This document shows, piece after piece, positions 4,376 through 15,771 of a DNA stretch of 64,000 bases. A model generated the notes under the pieces. That model was not told the origin of the DNA. It did no database searches and saw only the letters and a program-made list of their open reading frames with translations. Origin of the DNA: Ancylobacter moscoviensis. Its GTDB lineage: Bacteria > Pseudomonadota > Alphaproteobacteria > Rhizobiales > Xanthobacteraceae. Within the stretch, counting starts at the first letter, position 1. Each line of letters begins with the position of its first letter. The stretch is taken from assembly GCF_007559435.1 (NCBI RefSeq), contig NZ_VMBP01000004.1, positions 124,001-188,000 of the forward strand, in the 5' to 3' direction. The position numbers were made by a program, and so were the translations under genes.

Positions 4376-5224
4376 ATGTTTGATATCGGCTGGTCCGAGC
4401 TTCTGGTGATCGGCGTCGTCGCCCTCGTGGTGATCGGGCCGAAGGAATTGCCGCGCGTCCTGCGCACGGTCGGGCAGGGCGTCGCCAAGCTGCGGCGCAT
4501 GGCGGGCGAGTTCCAGGGCCAGTTCAACGAGGCGCTGCGCGAGGCGGAGCTGTCCGACCTCAAGGATAATGTCAGCGCGCTCAAGAACGATCTTTCCGGC
4601 CTCGCCACGGATGCGCGAAATTCCATCTCGAACGCGATTCCGACCAACCCCCTGCAGGATATCGAGACGGAGCTGAAGGCGCCGACCGGCAGCGTGGAAC
4701 GCGCCGATCTGCCAGCGGCAGGCACCGCGTCGGCATCGGATGCCGTGGCGGACCAGCTTCCGCCCCCGGGCGATCTGGAGCCGCACCCCTTCGAGACCAT
4801 CGAAGAGGAGGTGCGCACCGCTGCCGCTCAGCTGGAGCCGGCGAAGACCGAGCCGGTCAAGGCGGAAGCCGCCAAGAGCGAGCCCGCCGGGACCGAGGGC
4901 AAGACCGCGACCGCAAAGACGGAGCCGGCCGTCGCGCAGGCCGCGGCGGACGCTAAGCCGAAGCGTAGTCGGGTCGCCGCCAAGCCGGCGGCGAAAGTTG
5001 CGGCATCGGCCGAAGCGACGCCGAAGAAACCTGCCGTCCGGCGCGCGCCGCGCAAGAACGCTACCGTCGAGCCCGAAGTGTCGGCTGCCGTCGCTGATCT
5101 CGACGCGCCGGCACCCGCGCGCAAGCCGGCCTCGAAGCCCGAACCGAAGACGACCGGCAAGGTGGCGGCGAAGCCGCGCGCCAAGGCGAAGCCGGATACC
5201 GGCAATGAAGGGCCGGCCGCATGA
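4376..5224 (+). CDS. tatB: Twin-arginine translocase subunit TatB, long-tailed
   Basis: A 282-residue TatB. The N-terminus 'MFDIGWSELLVIGVVALVV' followed by 'IGPKELPRVLRTVG' is the TatB signature (membrane helix, Pro hinge, amphipathic helix). TatB binds TatC and helps to recognise twin-arginine signal peptides. The region beyond about residue 100 is a low-complexity Ala/Lys/Pro/Glu-rich tail of some 180 residues with many 'KPA' and 'KTEP' repeats, much longer than the E. coli protein (171 residues in total) and presumably disordered. The stop overlaps tatC in ATGA. Confidence 0.94.
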   Translation: MFDIGWSELLVIGVVALVVIGPKELPRVLRTVGQGVAKLRRMAGEFQGQFNEALREAELSDLKDNVSALKNDLSGLATDARNSISNAIPTNPLQDIETELKAPTGSVERADLPAAGTASASDAVADQLPPPGDLEPHPFETIEEEVRTAAAQLEPAKTEPVKAEAAKSEPAGTEGKTATAKTEPAVAQAAADAKPKRSRVAAKPAAKVAASAEATPKKPAVRRAPRKNATVEPEVSAAVADLDAPAPARKPASKPEPKTTGKVAAKPRAKAKPDTGNEGPAA

Positions 5225-6040: not shown

Positions 6041-7489
6041 ATGCACGACATCAAGTGGATCCGCGAGGAGCCGCGCGGTCTTGTCGACGCGCTGGTGCGG
6101 CGCGGCACGATCGAGGCCGAGGCGCAGGCGCTGGTCGATGGCCTGATCGCGCTCGACGAGCGCCGCCGGAGCGGCATCGGCAAGCTGGAAGAGCTACAGG
6201 CCCGTCGCAACGCCGCCTCCAAGGAGATCGGCGCCGCCAAGAAGGACGGCCAGAACGACCGCGCCGAGGCGCTGATGGCCGAGGTTGCCGCGCTCAAGAC
6301 CGACATTCCCGCGCTGGAAGAGGACGTGAAGGCGGCCGAGGCCGAGCTGTTCGAAAAGCTCGCCGCCATCCCGAACGCGCCGCTGGCCGAGGTTCCTTTC
6401 GGCAAGGACGAGCACGACAATGTCGAGTTCACGCGCTTCGGCGAGAAGCGCGCCTATGCCTTCACGCCGAAGCAGCATTTCGAGATCGGCGAGGCGCTCG
6501 GCCAGATGGATTTCGAAGCCGCGGCAAAGCTCTCCGGCGCCCGCTTCGTCGTCCTGAAGAACAGGCTGGCGCGGCTGGAGCGGGCCATCGGCCAGTTCTT
6601 CATCGACACGCACACGACCGAGCATGGCTACATGGAAGTGGCGCCGCCCGTGCTCGTGCGGGACGAGGCGATGTTCGGCACGGCTCAGCTTCCGAAGTTC
6701 CGGGAGGATCAGTTCGCTGCTGGGTACAAGTTATCAAACAAGGAATTGTATCGCGAGAATGACATTCAGGCCCGAAAGCTTGCTGCGCAGGAGCTAAAGA
6801 AGCTTGAGAGCGAAGTTACGCTTTTCGACTTGGTTGACGGAGATTTTTACGAAAAGGCTGTTGCTCTTATTCCCGAGCGAGCCAGCTTTTGGCTCATTCC
6901 TACGGCCGAGGTGCCGCTGACCAACCTCGTGGCCCAGTCTATCCTCTCCGAGGAAGAGCTGCCGCTGCGCTTCACCGCGCTCACACCCTGCTTCCGCGCC
7001 GAGGCGGGATCGGCGGGGCGCGATACGCGCGGGATGATCCGTCAGCACCAGTTCAACAAGGTGGAGATGGTCTCCATCACCACGCCCGAGAAGTCGCTGG
7101 AAGAGCAGGAGCGCATGCTCGCCTGCGCGCAGGCGGTGCTGAAGAAGCTCGACCTGCACCACCGGGTGGTGACGCTGTGCACCGGCGACATGGGCTTCGC
7201 CTCGGCCCGTACCTTCGACATCGAGGTGTGGCTGCCGGGGCAGGACGCCTATCGCGAGATTTCGTCGGTCTCGACCTGCTCCGATTTCCAGGCGCGCCGC
7301 ATGAACGCGCGCTACCGTCCGAAGGACGCGAAGTCCCCGCGCTTCGTCCACACGCTCAACGGTTCGGGCGTGGCGGTGGGGCGCGCCATGGTGGCGATCC
7401 TCGAGAACTACCAGAACGAGGACGGCTCGGTGACGGTGCCGGACGTGCTGGTGCCCTATATGGGCGGGCTGACGAAGATCGAGCGGTAG
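6041..7489 (+). CDS. serS: Seryl-tRNA synthetase with an in-frame insertion
   Basis: A class II aminoacyl-tRNA synthetase that charges tRNA-Ser (and tRNA-Sec where present). The N-terminal coiled-coil arm spans roughly residues 1-110; the catalytic core has '[12 protein letters not shown]' (the TxE serine-binding loop), motif 2 '[14 protein letters not shown]' and motif 3 '[14 protein letters not shown]'. The protein is 482 residues, about 55 longer than the usual 425-430. The excess is one block, about residues 226-283, between 'LPKFREDQF' and 'WLIPTAEV'. This block is AT-rich (about 47% GC by my count over 6721-6900) in an otherwise clearly GC-rich gene and uses codons such as TTA, TCA, CTA and GTT that are rare in its neighbours. 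All catalytic motifs are intact, so the enzyme is probably active. Confidence 0.93.
6716..6889 (+). other. AT-rich in-frame insertion within serS
   Basis: Segment of 174 bases encoding 58 residues between the conserved 'REDQF' and 'WLIPTAEV' of SerRS. Other SerRS proteins have a short linker here (about 14 residues in E. coli, somewhat longer in some Rhizobiales). The segment is predicted mostly helical and charged ('[16 protein letters not shown]'). Base composition and codon choice change abruptly at both edges. I found no clear target-site duplication and no long palindrome, so it does not look like a typical palindromic element. It may be a foreign peptide-coding insertion or a segment from a recombined allele. 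Confidence 0.7.
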
Positions 7490-9082: not shown

Positions 9083-10282
9083 ATGCGTAATCTTTTGTCG
9101 GCGTCCGGTTCCGGTCCACTGGTGCGGCTTTCCATCGTTGCCCTCGTTGCGAGCGGGGCAGCCGCCTGTAGCTCCGACGTGAGCCGCTTCAACGACCCCA
9201 ATGCCAATCCCTTTTCAGGTTCACCGGCCTATACGGGGTCAGTGGCGTCCGCTCCCACGGGGACGGTGCAGCGGGCGCCGATTTCCAGCCAGCCTGTCGC
9301 CGCTGCGTACCCCTCGACCTACGGTTCTTCGGCGCCCTACGGTACGCCGGCCGTCGCCACTGCGCCCTACGGCGCGCCGCGTGTGGCCAGCGCTGCGCCG
9401 ACCTACGCGCCGCCTTCCGCTTCGTCGAATTATGGCGGCACGCAGCCGCTCTATGGTTCCCAGCCGCAGGCTCTTGCCGCGCCGAAGCCCGCTCCGCAGG
9501 TTGCGGCTGCCGCGACGGGCGGTGGCTCGCATGTCGTCACCTCCGGCCAGACTCTGAGCTCGATCGCCCGCAATTACGGCCTCTCGCGCAGCGCTCTCGC
9601 CGCTGCCAATGGTCTCGATCCCAACGCGCAGGTGCAGATCGGCCGGAAGCTGACCATTCCGGGTGCCGGTTCCACGATGGTCGCCGCTGCCCCGAAGCCG
9701 ACGACGCCGGCGGCCGCTCCCGCGTTGACTCCCGTGGCCGCCAAGCCGGCCGCCACAACCCCCGTTGTCGCGGCTGCGCCGGCGGCCGCAGCCGCCAAAC
9801 CCGCTTCGGTCGCCGTCGCTCCGGCGGCGCAGGCCGAGAAGCCGCAGACCATCGCCGCCGTGAAGCCGTCCGAAACACCGGACGACGCGCGCTCGGACGG
9901 TGGCTCGCAGTTCCGCTGGCCGGTGCGTGGCCGCGTCATCTCCGGCTTCGGGCCGAAGCCCGGCGGGCAGCAGAATGAAGGCATCAACGTCTCGGTGCCG
10001 GAAGGCACCTCGGTCAAGGCGGCCGAGGATGGCGTCGTCGCCTATGCCGGAAGCGAGCTCAAGGGCTACGGTAACCTCGTACTGATCAAGCACTCGAACG
10101 GCTATGTCACCGCCTATGCACACAACAGCGCGCTGGACGTGAAGAAGGGCGACACGGTCAAGCGTGGTCAGGTGATCGCCAAGGCCGGCCAGACCGGCAG
10201 CGTCACCTCGCCCCAGCTGCATTTCGAGATCCGCAAGGGTTCGCAGCCGGTCGATCCGTCCCAGTACCTCGCCGGTCTCTGA
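9083..10282 (+). CDS. NlpD-like LysM/M23 lipoprotein, probably non-catalytic
   Basis: A 399-residue predicted outer-membrane lipoprotein. The signal peptide ends at 'GAAAC' with C29 as the lipidation residue. A LysM domain ('HVVTSGQTLSSIARNYGLS') lies near residues 151-195, after a Tyr/Pro/Ala-rich linker; an Ala/Pro linker follows, then a C-terminal M23 domain (about 280-397). Key metal ligands of active M23 peptidases are replaced: the HxxxD site reads 'NEGIN' and the HxH motif reads 'QLHFEIR'; only 'YAHN' is kept. E. coli NlpD is degenerate at the equivalent HxxxD position. The protein therefore probably activates a periplasmic amidase rather than cutting peptidoglycan itself. Position after surE-pcm supports the NlpD assignment; DipM-like is an alternative. 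Confidence 0.85.
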   Translation: MRNLLSASGSGPLVRLSIVALVASGAAACSSDVSRFNDPNANPFSGSPAYTGSVASAPTGTVQRAPISSQPVAAAYPSTYGSSAPYGTPAVATAPYGAPRVASAAPTYAPPSASSNYGGTQPLYGSQPQALAAPKPAPQVAAAATGGGSHVVTSGQTLSSIARNYGLSRSALAAANGLDPNAQVQIGRKLTIPGAGSTMVAAAPKPTTPAAAPALTPVAAKPAATTPVVAAAPAAAAAKPASVAVAPAAQAEKPQTIAAVKPSETPDDARSDGGSQFRWPVRGRVISGFGPKPGGQQNEGINVSVPEGTSVKAAEDGVVAYAGSELKGYGNLVLIKHSNGYVTAYAHNSALDVKKGDTVKRGQVIAKAGQTGSVTSPQLHFEIRKGSQPVDPSQYLAGL

Positions 10283-14483: not shown

Positions 14484-14861
14484 ATGGCGACACCCGACGC
14501 CCATCTGCCGCGCCAGGTGCCGATCGATGGCTATGGCCGCTGGTCCTTCCATTTCGCCGGCATGGCGTCGGAAGGCTCCATTCTCGCCCTGCCGTCCGGC
14601 ATCCACGCCTGGGCAGCGCGTGTGCCGGCCGATGTCGACGCGGCGGCGCTCGCTCCCGTCATCGTGCAATCGGCAGGCATCGAGCTGCTGCTGATCGGCA
14701 CCGGGCCGGATCCCTGGCCAGTGCCCGATGCGTTGCGCTGGCGGTTGAGGGATGTCGGCATCTCGGTCGATGCCATGCCGACGCGTGCCGCCGCCTCCAC
14801 CTATAACGTGCTTCTGGCGGAAGGCCGCGCGGTTGCCGCCGCGCTGCTGGCGCTGCCATGA
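14484..14861 (+). CDS. Mth938/NDUFAF3-like protein (DUF498)
   Basis: A 125-residue protein of the Mth938 (DUF498) family, to which human complex I assembly factor NDUFAF3 belongs. Visible hallmarks are the 'SILALPSGIHAWA' strand region, 'IELLLIGTGPDPWPVP' and the C-terminal 'STYNVLLAEGRAVAAALL'. The ATG follows GGAAGG at good spacing. In alphaproteobacteria this gene typically follows secF, as here, which has been taken to suggest a membrane-assembly role. In bacteria the function has not been shown directly. A complete complex I operon is 7 kb downstream. Confidence 0.85.
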   Translation: MATPDAHLPRQVPIDGYGRWSFHFAGMASEGSILALPSGIHAWAARVPADVDAAALAPVIVQSAGIELLLIGTGPDPWPVPDALRWRLRDVGISVDAMPTRAAASTYNVLLAEGRAVAAALLALP

Positions 14862-14898
14862 GCGGGGCGATGCGCGTGTTCCCCTGGGAGCCCGGATC

Positions 14899-15771
14899 AT
14901 GAGCGGGCCGGGTGTGATTTCGGACGCCGACTATTGCGCGCGTCTCGTTCGTGAACTCGATCGCGACCGCTATGTCGCGGATCTGTTCGCGCCCGCCGGG
15001 CGGCGAGGGGCGCTGTTCGCGCTCCATGCCTTCAATGTCGAGGTGGCGCGGGTGCGTGAGGCGATCACCAATCCCATGGCCGGGGAGGTGAGGCTGCAAT
15101 GGTGGAGCGAGGCGCTGATCGGCGGGGCGCGCGGCGATGTCCGCGCCAACCCCGTCGCTGCGGCGCTGCTGGACGCCATCGAGACCTATCGCCTGCCGCG
15201 CGAGACCTTCTTCGCGCTTCTCGATGCGCGTATCTTCGATCTCTACGACGATCCGATGCCGACCGTGAACGATCTCGAAGGCTATGCCGGCGAGACCTCG
15301 TCGGCCCTCATCCGGCTGGCGACGCTGATTCTGTCGGGGGAGGCCGGCCGGGCCTCAGCAGAGGCTGCCGGCCATGCGGGTGTCGCCTATGCGGTGATGG
15401 GTCTGCTGCGCGCCTTTCCCATCCATGCGCGGCGTGGCCAGTGCTATGTGCCGCTGGACCTGCTCAAGAGGCACGGATTGACCCGCGAGGATGCCGTGTC
15501 CGGCCCGGCAAGCCCCGGACTGCGGGCCGCGCTGGCCGAGATGCGCGTGCTGGCCCGGCGCCATTACGAGGCGGCGATCGAGGCGCTTGGGGACGTCGAT
15601 GCCGTCGAGCTCCCCGCCTTCCTACCGCTGACGCTGGTTCCCGGCGATCTCGCCCGCATGGAGCGGCCGCACGACCCGTTCGTGGCCGTACCGGCTACAT
15701 CGGCCTTCAGCCGCCTGTGGCGGCTCTGGAGGGGTGCCCGCACGCTGCGCAAGGCGACCGAGGCGGACTAG
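14899..15771 (+). CDS. NDUFAF6-like squalene/phytoene synthase-fold protein
   Basis: A 290-residue protein of the squalene/phytoene synthase superfamily. The Asp-rich substrate-Mg2+ motifs of true synthases are absent: the first helix reads 'ALHAFNVEVARVREA' (about residues 41-55) and the second 'LLRAFPIHARRGQCYVP' (about 169-185), neither with DxxxD. This fits the subgroup of mitochondrial NDUFAF6 (C8orf38), a complex I assembly factor, rather than an isoprenoid enzyme. The frame extends upstream to 14752, but ATG 14899 gives the expected N-terminus. It follows the NDUFAF3-like gene by 37 bases. Automatic annotation would probably call it phytoene synthase. Confidence 0.8.
   Translation: MSGPGVISDADYCARLVRELDRDRYVADLFAPAGRRGALFALHAFNVEVARVREAITNPMAGEVRLQWWSEALIGGARGDVRANPVAAALLDAIETYRLPRETFFALLDARIFDLYDDPMPTVNDLEGYAGETSSALIRLATLILSGEAGRASAEAAGHAGVAYAVMGLLRAFPIHARRGQCYVPLDLLKRHGLTREDAVSGPASPGLRAALAEMRVLARRHYEAAIEALGDVDAVELPAFLPLTLVPGDLARMERPHDPFVAVPATSAFSRLWRLWRGARTLRKATEAD

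What the first reader, a model, noticed from the sequence alone, without database searches (positions are those of the whole stretch)
6716..6889. AT-rich, rare-codon in-frame insertion inside serS
A block of about 58 codons separates conserved SerRS motifs 'REDQF' and 'WLIPTAEV', where other enzymes have a short linker. By my count GC over 6721-6900 is about 47%, while the neighbouring serS sequence is far more GC-rich, and codons such as TTA, TCA, CTA, GTT and ATT cluster only here. The frame is kept and all catalytic motifs are intact. It sits just before the TxE serine-binding loop, so it could affect substrate binding, regulation or antibiotic resistance. An essential gene that has tolerated a recent foreign peptide insertion is unusual.
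Basis: partly seen in the sequence, partly recalled or inferred. Interest (0 to 1): 0.7.

Follow-up and report, generated by a model that had tools for sequence, protein, structure and literature searches.

The report
Swappable mini-domain inside seryl-tRNA synthetase
An essential protein-making enzyme of alphaproteobacteria carries, at one fixed spot before its serine-binding motif, a small extra domain that is often unrelated even between close species, as if it were repeatedly swapped, which hints at a hidden conflict around a core enzyme.

Summary
In detail: serS (window 6041-7489) carries an open 54-codon block (6719-6880), GC 0.469 against 0.668 for the rest of the gene.

It is not a one-off. 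Of 30 species of the genus, 23 carry an insert of 29-91 aa at this point and 7 none; the 23 fall into 17 clusters. Among 216 distinct serS genes, 106 inserts of 20 aa or more form 82 clusters, 68 of them singletons. Species with 97% identical SerRS cores can carry unrelated inserts. The two largest insert groups are scattered on the core tree as at random. Where shared-insert pairs could be measured, dN/dS is 0.03-0.25 (8 of 17 pairs). AlphaFold predicts three helices for this insert and for another cluster's. ThrRS in the same 30 genomes has nothing like it. In a phylum sample only Alphaproteobacteria split at this site (6 of 38; 0 of 104 others). Codons private to this strain suggest recent co-import.

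Best mechanism (inferred): diversifying selection by an antagonist that binds SerRS. Rivals: embedded immunity domain; swapping without selection. Nine literature searches found no report.

The parts
6041..7489 (+). serS, seryl-tRNA synthetase, 482 aa
6719..6880 (+). the variable insert, residues 227-280; GC 0.469; predicted helices at residues 233-252, 261-266 and 269-276
6659..6718 (+). conserved left flank (20 codons); codons -10 (CTT), -12 (GCT) and -20 (CGG) are shared with 0 of 29 congeners
6881..6940 (+). right flank (20 codons), conserved WLIPTAEV from codon +4; codons +6 (ATT), +7 (CCT), +8 (ACG) and +20 (TCT) are shared with 0 of 29 congeners; 29 of 29 others read ATC CCC at +6 and +7

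Best explanation
The block is one allele of a very diverse set of small domains that occupy a single insertion-tolerant loop of alphaproteobacterial SerRS, between the REDQF segment and the WLIPTAEV (TxE) motif. Shown: it is in frame and open; unrelated domains stand at the same point in close relatives; the two largest insert types are scattered independently of the core gene; shared inserts are under purifying selection where measurable; the two that were modelled are predicted to fold. Inferred: domains are replaced by recombination within the conserved flanks, sometimes carrying a few dozen flanking bases, as probably happened recently in this strain. Inferred, and least certain: replacement is driven by rare-allele advantage, because the domain alters or covers a surface near the active site that some antagonist (a phage protein, or a protein or peptide made by competitors) must recognise, so that a strain with an uncommon domain escapes.
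For: Same site, different insert: 23 of 30 congeners in 17 clusters, 7 without; 82 clusters among 106 inserts. Of 14 pairs with core identity of 95% or more and both inserts of 20 aa or more, 2 share a cluster; L005/L030 are 97.7% identical in the core with unrelated inserts of 55 and 29 aa; L026/L029 97.4% with 91 aa against none. Insert groups F4 (10 genes) and F1 (9 genes) need 10 and 9 changes on the core tree, shuffled means 9.8 and 8.9. dN/dS 0.03-0.25 in the 8 of 17 shared-insert pairs that are not saturated. Globular composition. Predicted helices with block pLDDT 91-95 at residues 241-270 and 86-96 at residues 231-260 of L218. Controls: ThrRS uniform in 30 of 30 congeners; of 13 mechanically picked neighbouring ORFs none has an internal low-conservation run with more than 46 residues, against 92 in serS. 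The F4 profile hit 5 of 297 genomes of the order, all five in serS, in five GTDB families. Flanks: lowered GC3 near the insert in insert-bearing genes; codons private to the window.
Against: No antagonist, partner or phenotype was identified. Purifying selection could merely mean that a bad fold would harm SerRS. Flank co-import is not general: within the genus the right flank reads ATC CCC in 29 of 29 others whatever the insert, and on the right side AT-ward synonymous codons at positions 5-10 are no commoner in insert-bearing than insertless genes (0.035 against 0.071). Whether strains of one species differ, which rare-allele advantage predicts, could not be tested. Seven of 30 congeners do without an insert.
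Confidence: 0.4

Rival explanations
1. Swapping without antagonists: the loop tolerates almost any small folded peptide, and ordinary recombination plus occasional capture of foreign ORF fragments replaces it; selection only removes inserts that harm SerRS.
For: Human SerRS has Insertion II (G254-N261), near the active site and said to matter little for aminoacylation (passages of PMC10817482); by residue numbers it is in this loop. The inserts scanned have no clear known relatives. The tree pattern equals random placement.
Against: ThrRS in the same 30 genomes and 13 neighbouring ORFs show nothing like it; 0 of 104 non-alphaproteobacterial genomes with a usable serS match split at this site, though the loop exists there too; one insert type recurs in several families only inside serS; turnover is fast relative to the core.
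Confidence: 0.27
2. Embedded immunity or antitoxin: each insert is an antitoxin-like domain against a particular toxin, kept safe by being part of an essential gene.
For: Best weak library hits include Pfam VbhA antitoxin (3 of 106 at E<=0.01, all related, best 1.3e-4) and NCBIfam Tsi2 anti-toxin (1 of 106, 3.1e-4). Size, helical make-up and diversity resemble immunity proteins (recalled, not tested).
Against: Both hits are far under the families' cut-offs (22.4 of 25.9 bits; 21.1 of 70 bits) and partial; other hits of like strength are to unrelated families (cwf21, HAAS, rve_2, Mua, PRK06062, ESAT6_2, DrmC), so the level is near chance for 106 scans per library. No toxin partner was sought systematically.
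Confidence: 0.15
3. Lineage-specific moonlighting or regulation: each insert docks SerRS to a local partner or tunes its activity.
For: Site before the TxE motif; other SerRSs have partner-binding additions (PMC10817482, passages).
Against: A conserved partner would not explain 17 clusters in 23 congeners or insertless sister species with 97% identical cores.
Confidence: 0.1

Closest known systems
Eukaryote-specific Insertion II of cytosolic SerRS (human G254-N261)
   Same: By residue numbers the same loop before the TxE strand, near the active site.
   Different: Described as a short feature of higher-eukaryote SerRS; not a pool of unrelated domains that differ between sister species.
Lineage-specific insertion domains of aminoacyl-tRNA synthetases (editing and idiosyncratic domains; recalled)
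   Same: An extra domain inside an aaRS catalytic domain.
   Different: Those are homologous within a lineage; here 106 inserts form 82 clusters at one site.
Loci that recombine under diversifying selection, such as HsdS target-recognition domains, polymorphic-toxin cassettes, fungal het genes (recalled; het-gene papers seen only as listing and abstract starts)
   Same: Many unrelated alleles at one point, decoupled from flanking phylogeny.
   Different: Those are accessory recognition genes; this is a single-copy translation enzyme with no known recognition role.
Inteins and Rickettsia palindromic elements (recalled)
   Same: In-frame insertions in essential genes.
   Different: Inserts of 93 aa or less are shorter than known inteins; sequences are mutually unrelated rather than one repeat family.

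Membership tests
Bacterial-type SerRS (serS) | N-terminal coiled-coil tRNA-binding domain and class II core domain | tested here: met
   PF02403 at 1-114 and PF00587 at 280-457; model with long helices 25-68 and 72-108 and mean pLDDT 90.3
Bacterial-type SerRS (serS) | Aminoacylation activity with the insert in place | not testable with these tools
   conserved motif residues present; no assay
Intein | Intein homology, with length above about 130 aa (recalled) | tested here: not met
   inserts 21-93 aa; no intein family among Pfam matches at E<=0.01 for 106 inserts
Repeat-type in-frame element (Rickettsia palindromic element-like) | Multiple similar copies in the genome | tested here: not met
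   the window's insert matches only serS in its own genome; no inverted repeat at the site
Silent-cassette gene conversion system | Further copies of the conserved border motif in the genome | tested here: not met
   the exact [12 protein letters not shown] pattern occurs once in 29 of 30 congeners and not at all in G025, whose W is G; cassettes without that motif are not excluded
VbhA antitoxin | Match above the Pfam cut-off covering the inhibitory helix | tested here: not met
   best 22.4 bits against 25.9, profile positions 23-47 of 47 only, in group F4 and not in the window's insert
Tsi2 immunity protein | Match above the NCBIfam cut-off | tested here: not met
   21.1 bits against 70, one insert (L206)
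Locus under diversifying (balancing) selection | Alleles shared across species and decoupled from flanking phylogeny | tested here: met
   groups F4 and F1 placed as at random on the core tree; both groups span several genera
Locus under diversifying (balancing) selection | Several alleles within one population or species | not testable with these tools
   collections hold one genome per species

The most novel reading that the evidence does not exclude
SerRS of Alphaproteobacteria is the polymorphic recognition locus of an undescribed conflict system: an essential translation enzyme whose swappable, MHC-like domain decides whether phages or competitors can seize or poison it, with hundreds of allelic domain families in circulation (Chao1 estimate 313 from a biased sample).
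Probability: 0.35. Interest if true: 0.92.

Novelty: categorically new. Interest (0 to 1): 0.8.

Why it matters
Aminoacyl-tRNA synthetases are textbook conserved genes. A single-copy one whose loop is filled by mutually unrelated folded domains, exchanged on the scale of sister species, would be an unfamiliar kind of genetic polymorphism. If antagonists drive it, SerRS becomes a marker for finding phage or bacterial weapons that act on translation. If not, the site is a natural showcase for how new folded domains enter an essential enzyme, and a ready-made insertion point for protein engineering. Either way the question can be tested by swapping domains in laboratory strains.

Tried and rejected
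Rejected: assembly artefact (comparable inserts in 106 of 216 distinct serS genes); untranslated or spliced element (open frame throughout, purifying selection); old family-specific linker (congeners differ); copy of a repeat or plasmid or phage gene: the window's insert matched itself and one weak place (E 0.04, not in serS) in 397 genomes of the order, and nothing in plasmids or phages at E<=1.

Led nowhere: Pfam, NCBIfam, PADLOC and PHROGs scans of 106 inserts gave only weak hits. PDB searches with groups F4 and F1 and with the window's insert had best E-values 0.028, 0.22 and 1. The F1 profile found only 2 weak places outside serS in 297 genomes and no serS, so it says little. Viral contigs gave 17 serS-like places; in the 16 with both halves read the link was 14 aa or shorter. 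Plasmid-borne serS: the 40 of 100 records listed had no long insert by match length. Foldseek searches could not be run. Nine literature searches listed nothing on this.

Results against my reading: the right flank is not generally co-imported in the genus; presence of an insert does follow the tree to a degree (41 changes, shuffled mean 72.9); cluster representatives share slightly more remote similarity than shuffles (28 pairs against 12.3 at score 35 or more), so some clusters are probably distant relatives. Synonymous differences in the insert exceed those of the N part in 16 of 17 pairs, which fits older alleles but also weaker codon bias. Group F1 in the tree test was widened by eye beyond its BLAST cluster (L021, L196, L237).

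Full report
Observation. serS lies at window 6041-7489, after tatB- and tatC-like ORFs and before surE- and pcm-like ORFs (gene names by recall of their sequences, not searched), and is a normal SerRS by Pfam. Between REDQF and WLIPTAEV it carries residues 227-280 (6719-6880), GC 0.469 against 0.668 for the rest of the gene.

Same site, other inserts. I compared serS in 30 genomes of the genus. Seven have a 2-residue link; 23 have inserts of 29-91 aa in 17 clusters. With further loci taken from a family search (the best-ranked part of a capped list, fetched) and from named genomes (best 80 of more than 585), I had 250 loci and 216 distinct genes: 106 inserts of 20 aa or more, 36 of 3-19 aa, 74 of 2 or fewer. 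These shares are not prevalences, because the loci were taken in order of similarity. The 106 inserts form 82 BLAST clusters, 68 of them singletons. Mean GC is 0.536 against 0.650 in the core, lower in 90 of 106.

Turnover. Of 29 pairs with core identity of 95% or more, 14 have two inserts of 20 aa or more and 2 of those 14 share a cluster; at 90-95% it is 2 of 39. The core tree (FastTree, 219 genes, insert left out; no clade test was run) places F4's 10 genes with 10 changes and F1's 9 with 9, as shuffled labels do. Presence of an insert changes 41 times against 72.9 in shuffles, so presence is partly inherited while type is not.

Selection. Of 17 pairs with shared inserts, 8 give a finite insert dN/dS, 0.03-0.25; 9 are saturated at synonymous sites. 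Inserts are globular in make-up, acidic and poor in cysteine (6 of 5800 residues; 0.1% against 1.2% in the core). Many start like A-T-R-x-L-S/T-x-E and end in L or F before W, as expected of a helical domain on a beta hairpin (inference).

Structure. AlphaFold puts helices at residues 233-252, 261-266 and 269-276 of the window's insert (block pLDDT 76, 93, 95, 91 and 70 from 231 to 280) although only one other row of the alignment had a possibly related insert. L218, from another insert cluster, has helices at 228-236, 241-248 and 254-264 (pLDDT 86, 96 and 93 over 231-260). By residue numbers the site is that of human Insertion II.

Mechanism of exchange. GC3 in the 15 codons beside the insert, relative to distant codons, falls by 0.159 and 0.111 in 101 insert-bearing genes against 0.023 and 0.022 in 76 with 8 aa or fewer (P 1.8e-11 and 9.8e-9; relatedness not corrected). 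In the window, codons -10, -12, -20, +6, +7, +8 and +20 are each shared with none of 29 congeners. In 20-kb comparisons the first 60 nt on either side differ by 0.17 and 0.18 in 202 pairs with different inserts, 0.13 and 0.12 in 5 with the same, 0.06 and 0.08 in 3 without. Against a general rule: 29 of 29 other congeners read ATC CCC after the W, and right-flank codons in the genus show no clear AT shift. So borders are usually within a few codons of the insert, and the window looks like a recent import with some flank. The border motif is single-copy in 29 of 30 congeners, so I see no silent cassettes.

Specificity. ThrRS: 30 of 30 congeners have one full-length match of 1701-1713 bp. Thirteen other ORFs near serS, picked mechanically and some of them probably antisense, have internal low-conservation runs of at most 46 residues (the LysM-type ORF 9083-10282); one ORF, 14752-15771, has a run of up to 88 at its end, with 15 orthologues and an uncertain frame. 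serS has one internal run of 3-92 residues.

Distribution. In 150 genomes of the phylum, serS is split by a long insert in 6, all among the 38 Alphaproteobacteria; of 112 others, 104 have a usable match and none is split, 8 have a weak, partial or no match. The F4 profile hit 5 of 297 genomes of the order, all in serS, in five GTDB families; one of them is a profile member.

Reading. The pattern (many unrelated, folded, purified domains at one point of one essential gene, decoupled from the rest of the gene) looks like loci under diversifying selection. An SerRS-binding antagonist is the simplest driver I can name. It is inferred; no partner was found. Papers: I saw passages of PMC10817482 and PMC11580382; all others only as search listings with abstract starts.

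Noticed in passing
G032: L038 and L039: This genome has two serS genes, one with a 93-aa insert and one without; its contamination estimate is 6, so the second may not belong to it.
   Followed up: no
G051 (L022 and contig C28): A second, distant SerRS-like ORF (44% identical, frame of 612 aa) beside the normal serS.
   Followed up: no
L144:1-100: A mistaken 33-aa query matched 38 of 142 genomes of the class, some with a stop inside; it is not serS and was not identified.
   Followed up: no
window 4376-5224 and 9083-10282: The tatB-like ORF and the LysM-type ORF have variable low-complexity stretches (up to 30 and 46 residues) among congeners.
   Followed up: no
106 inserts, all loci: Inserts are strongly depleted of cysteine, 6 of 5800 residues against 1.2% in the SerRS core; unexplained.
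   Followed up: no
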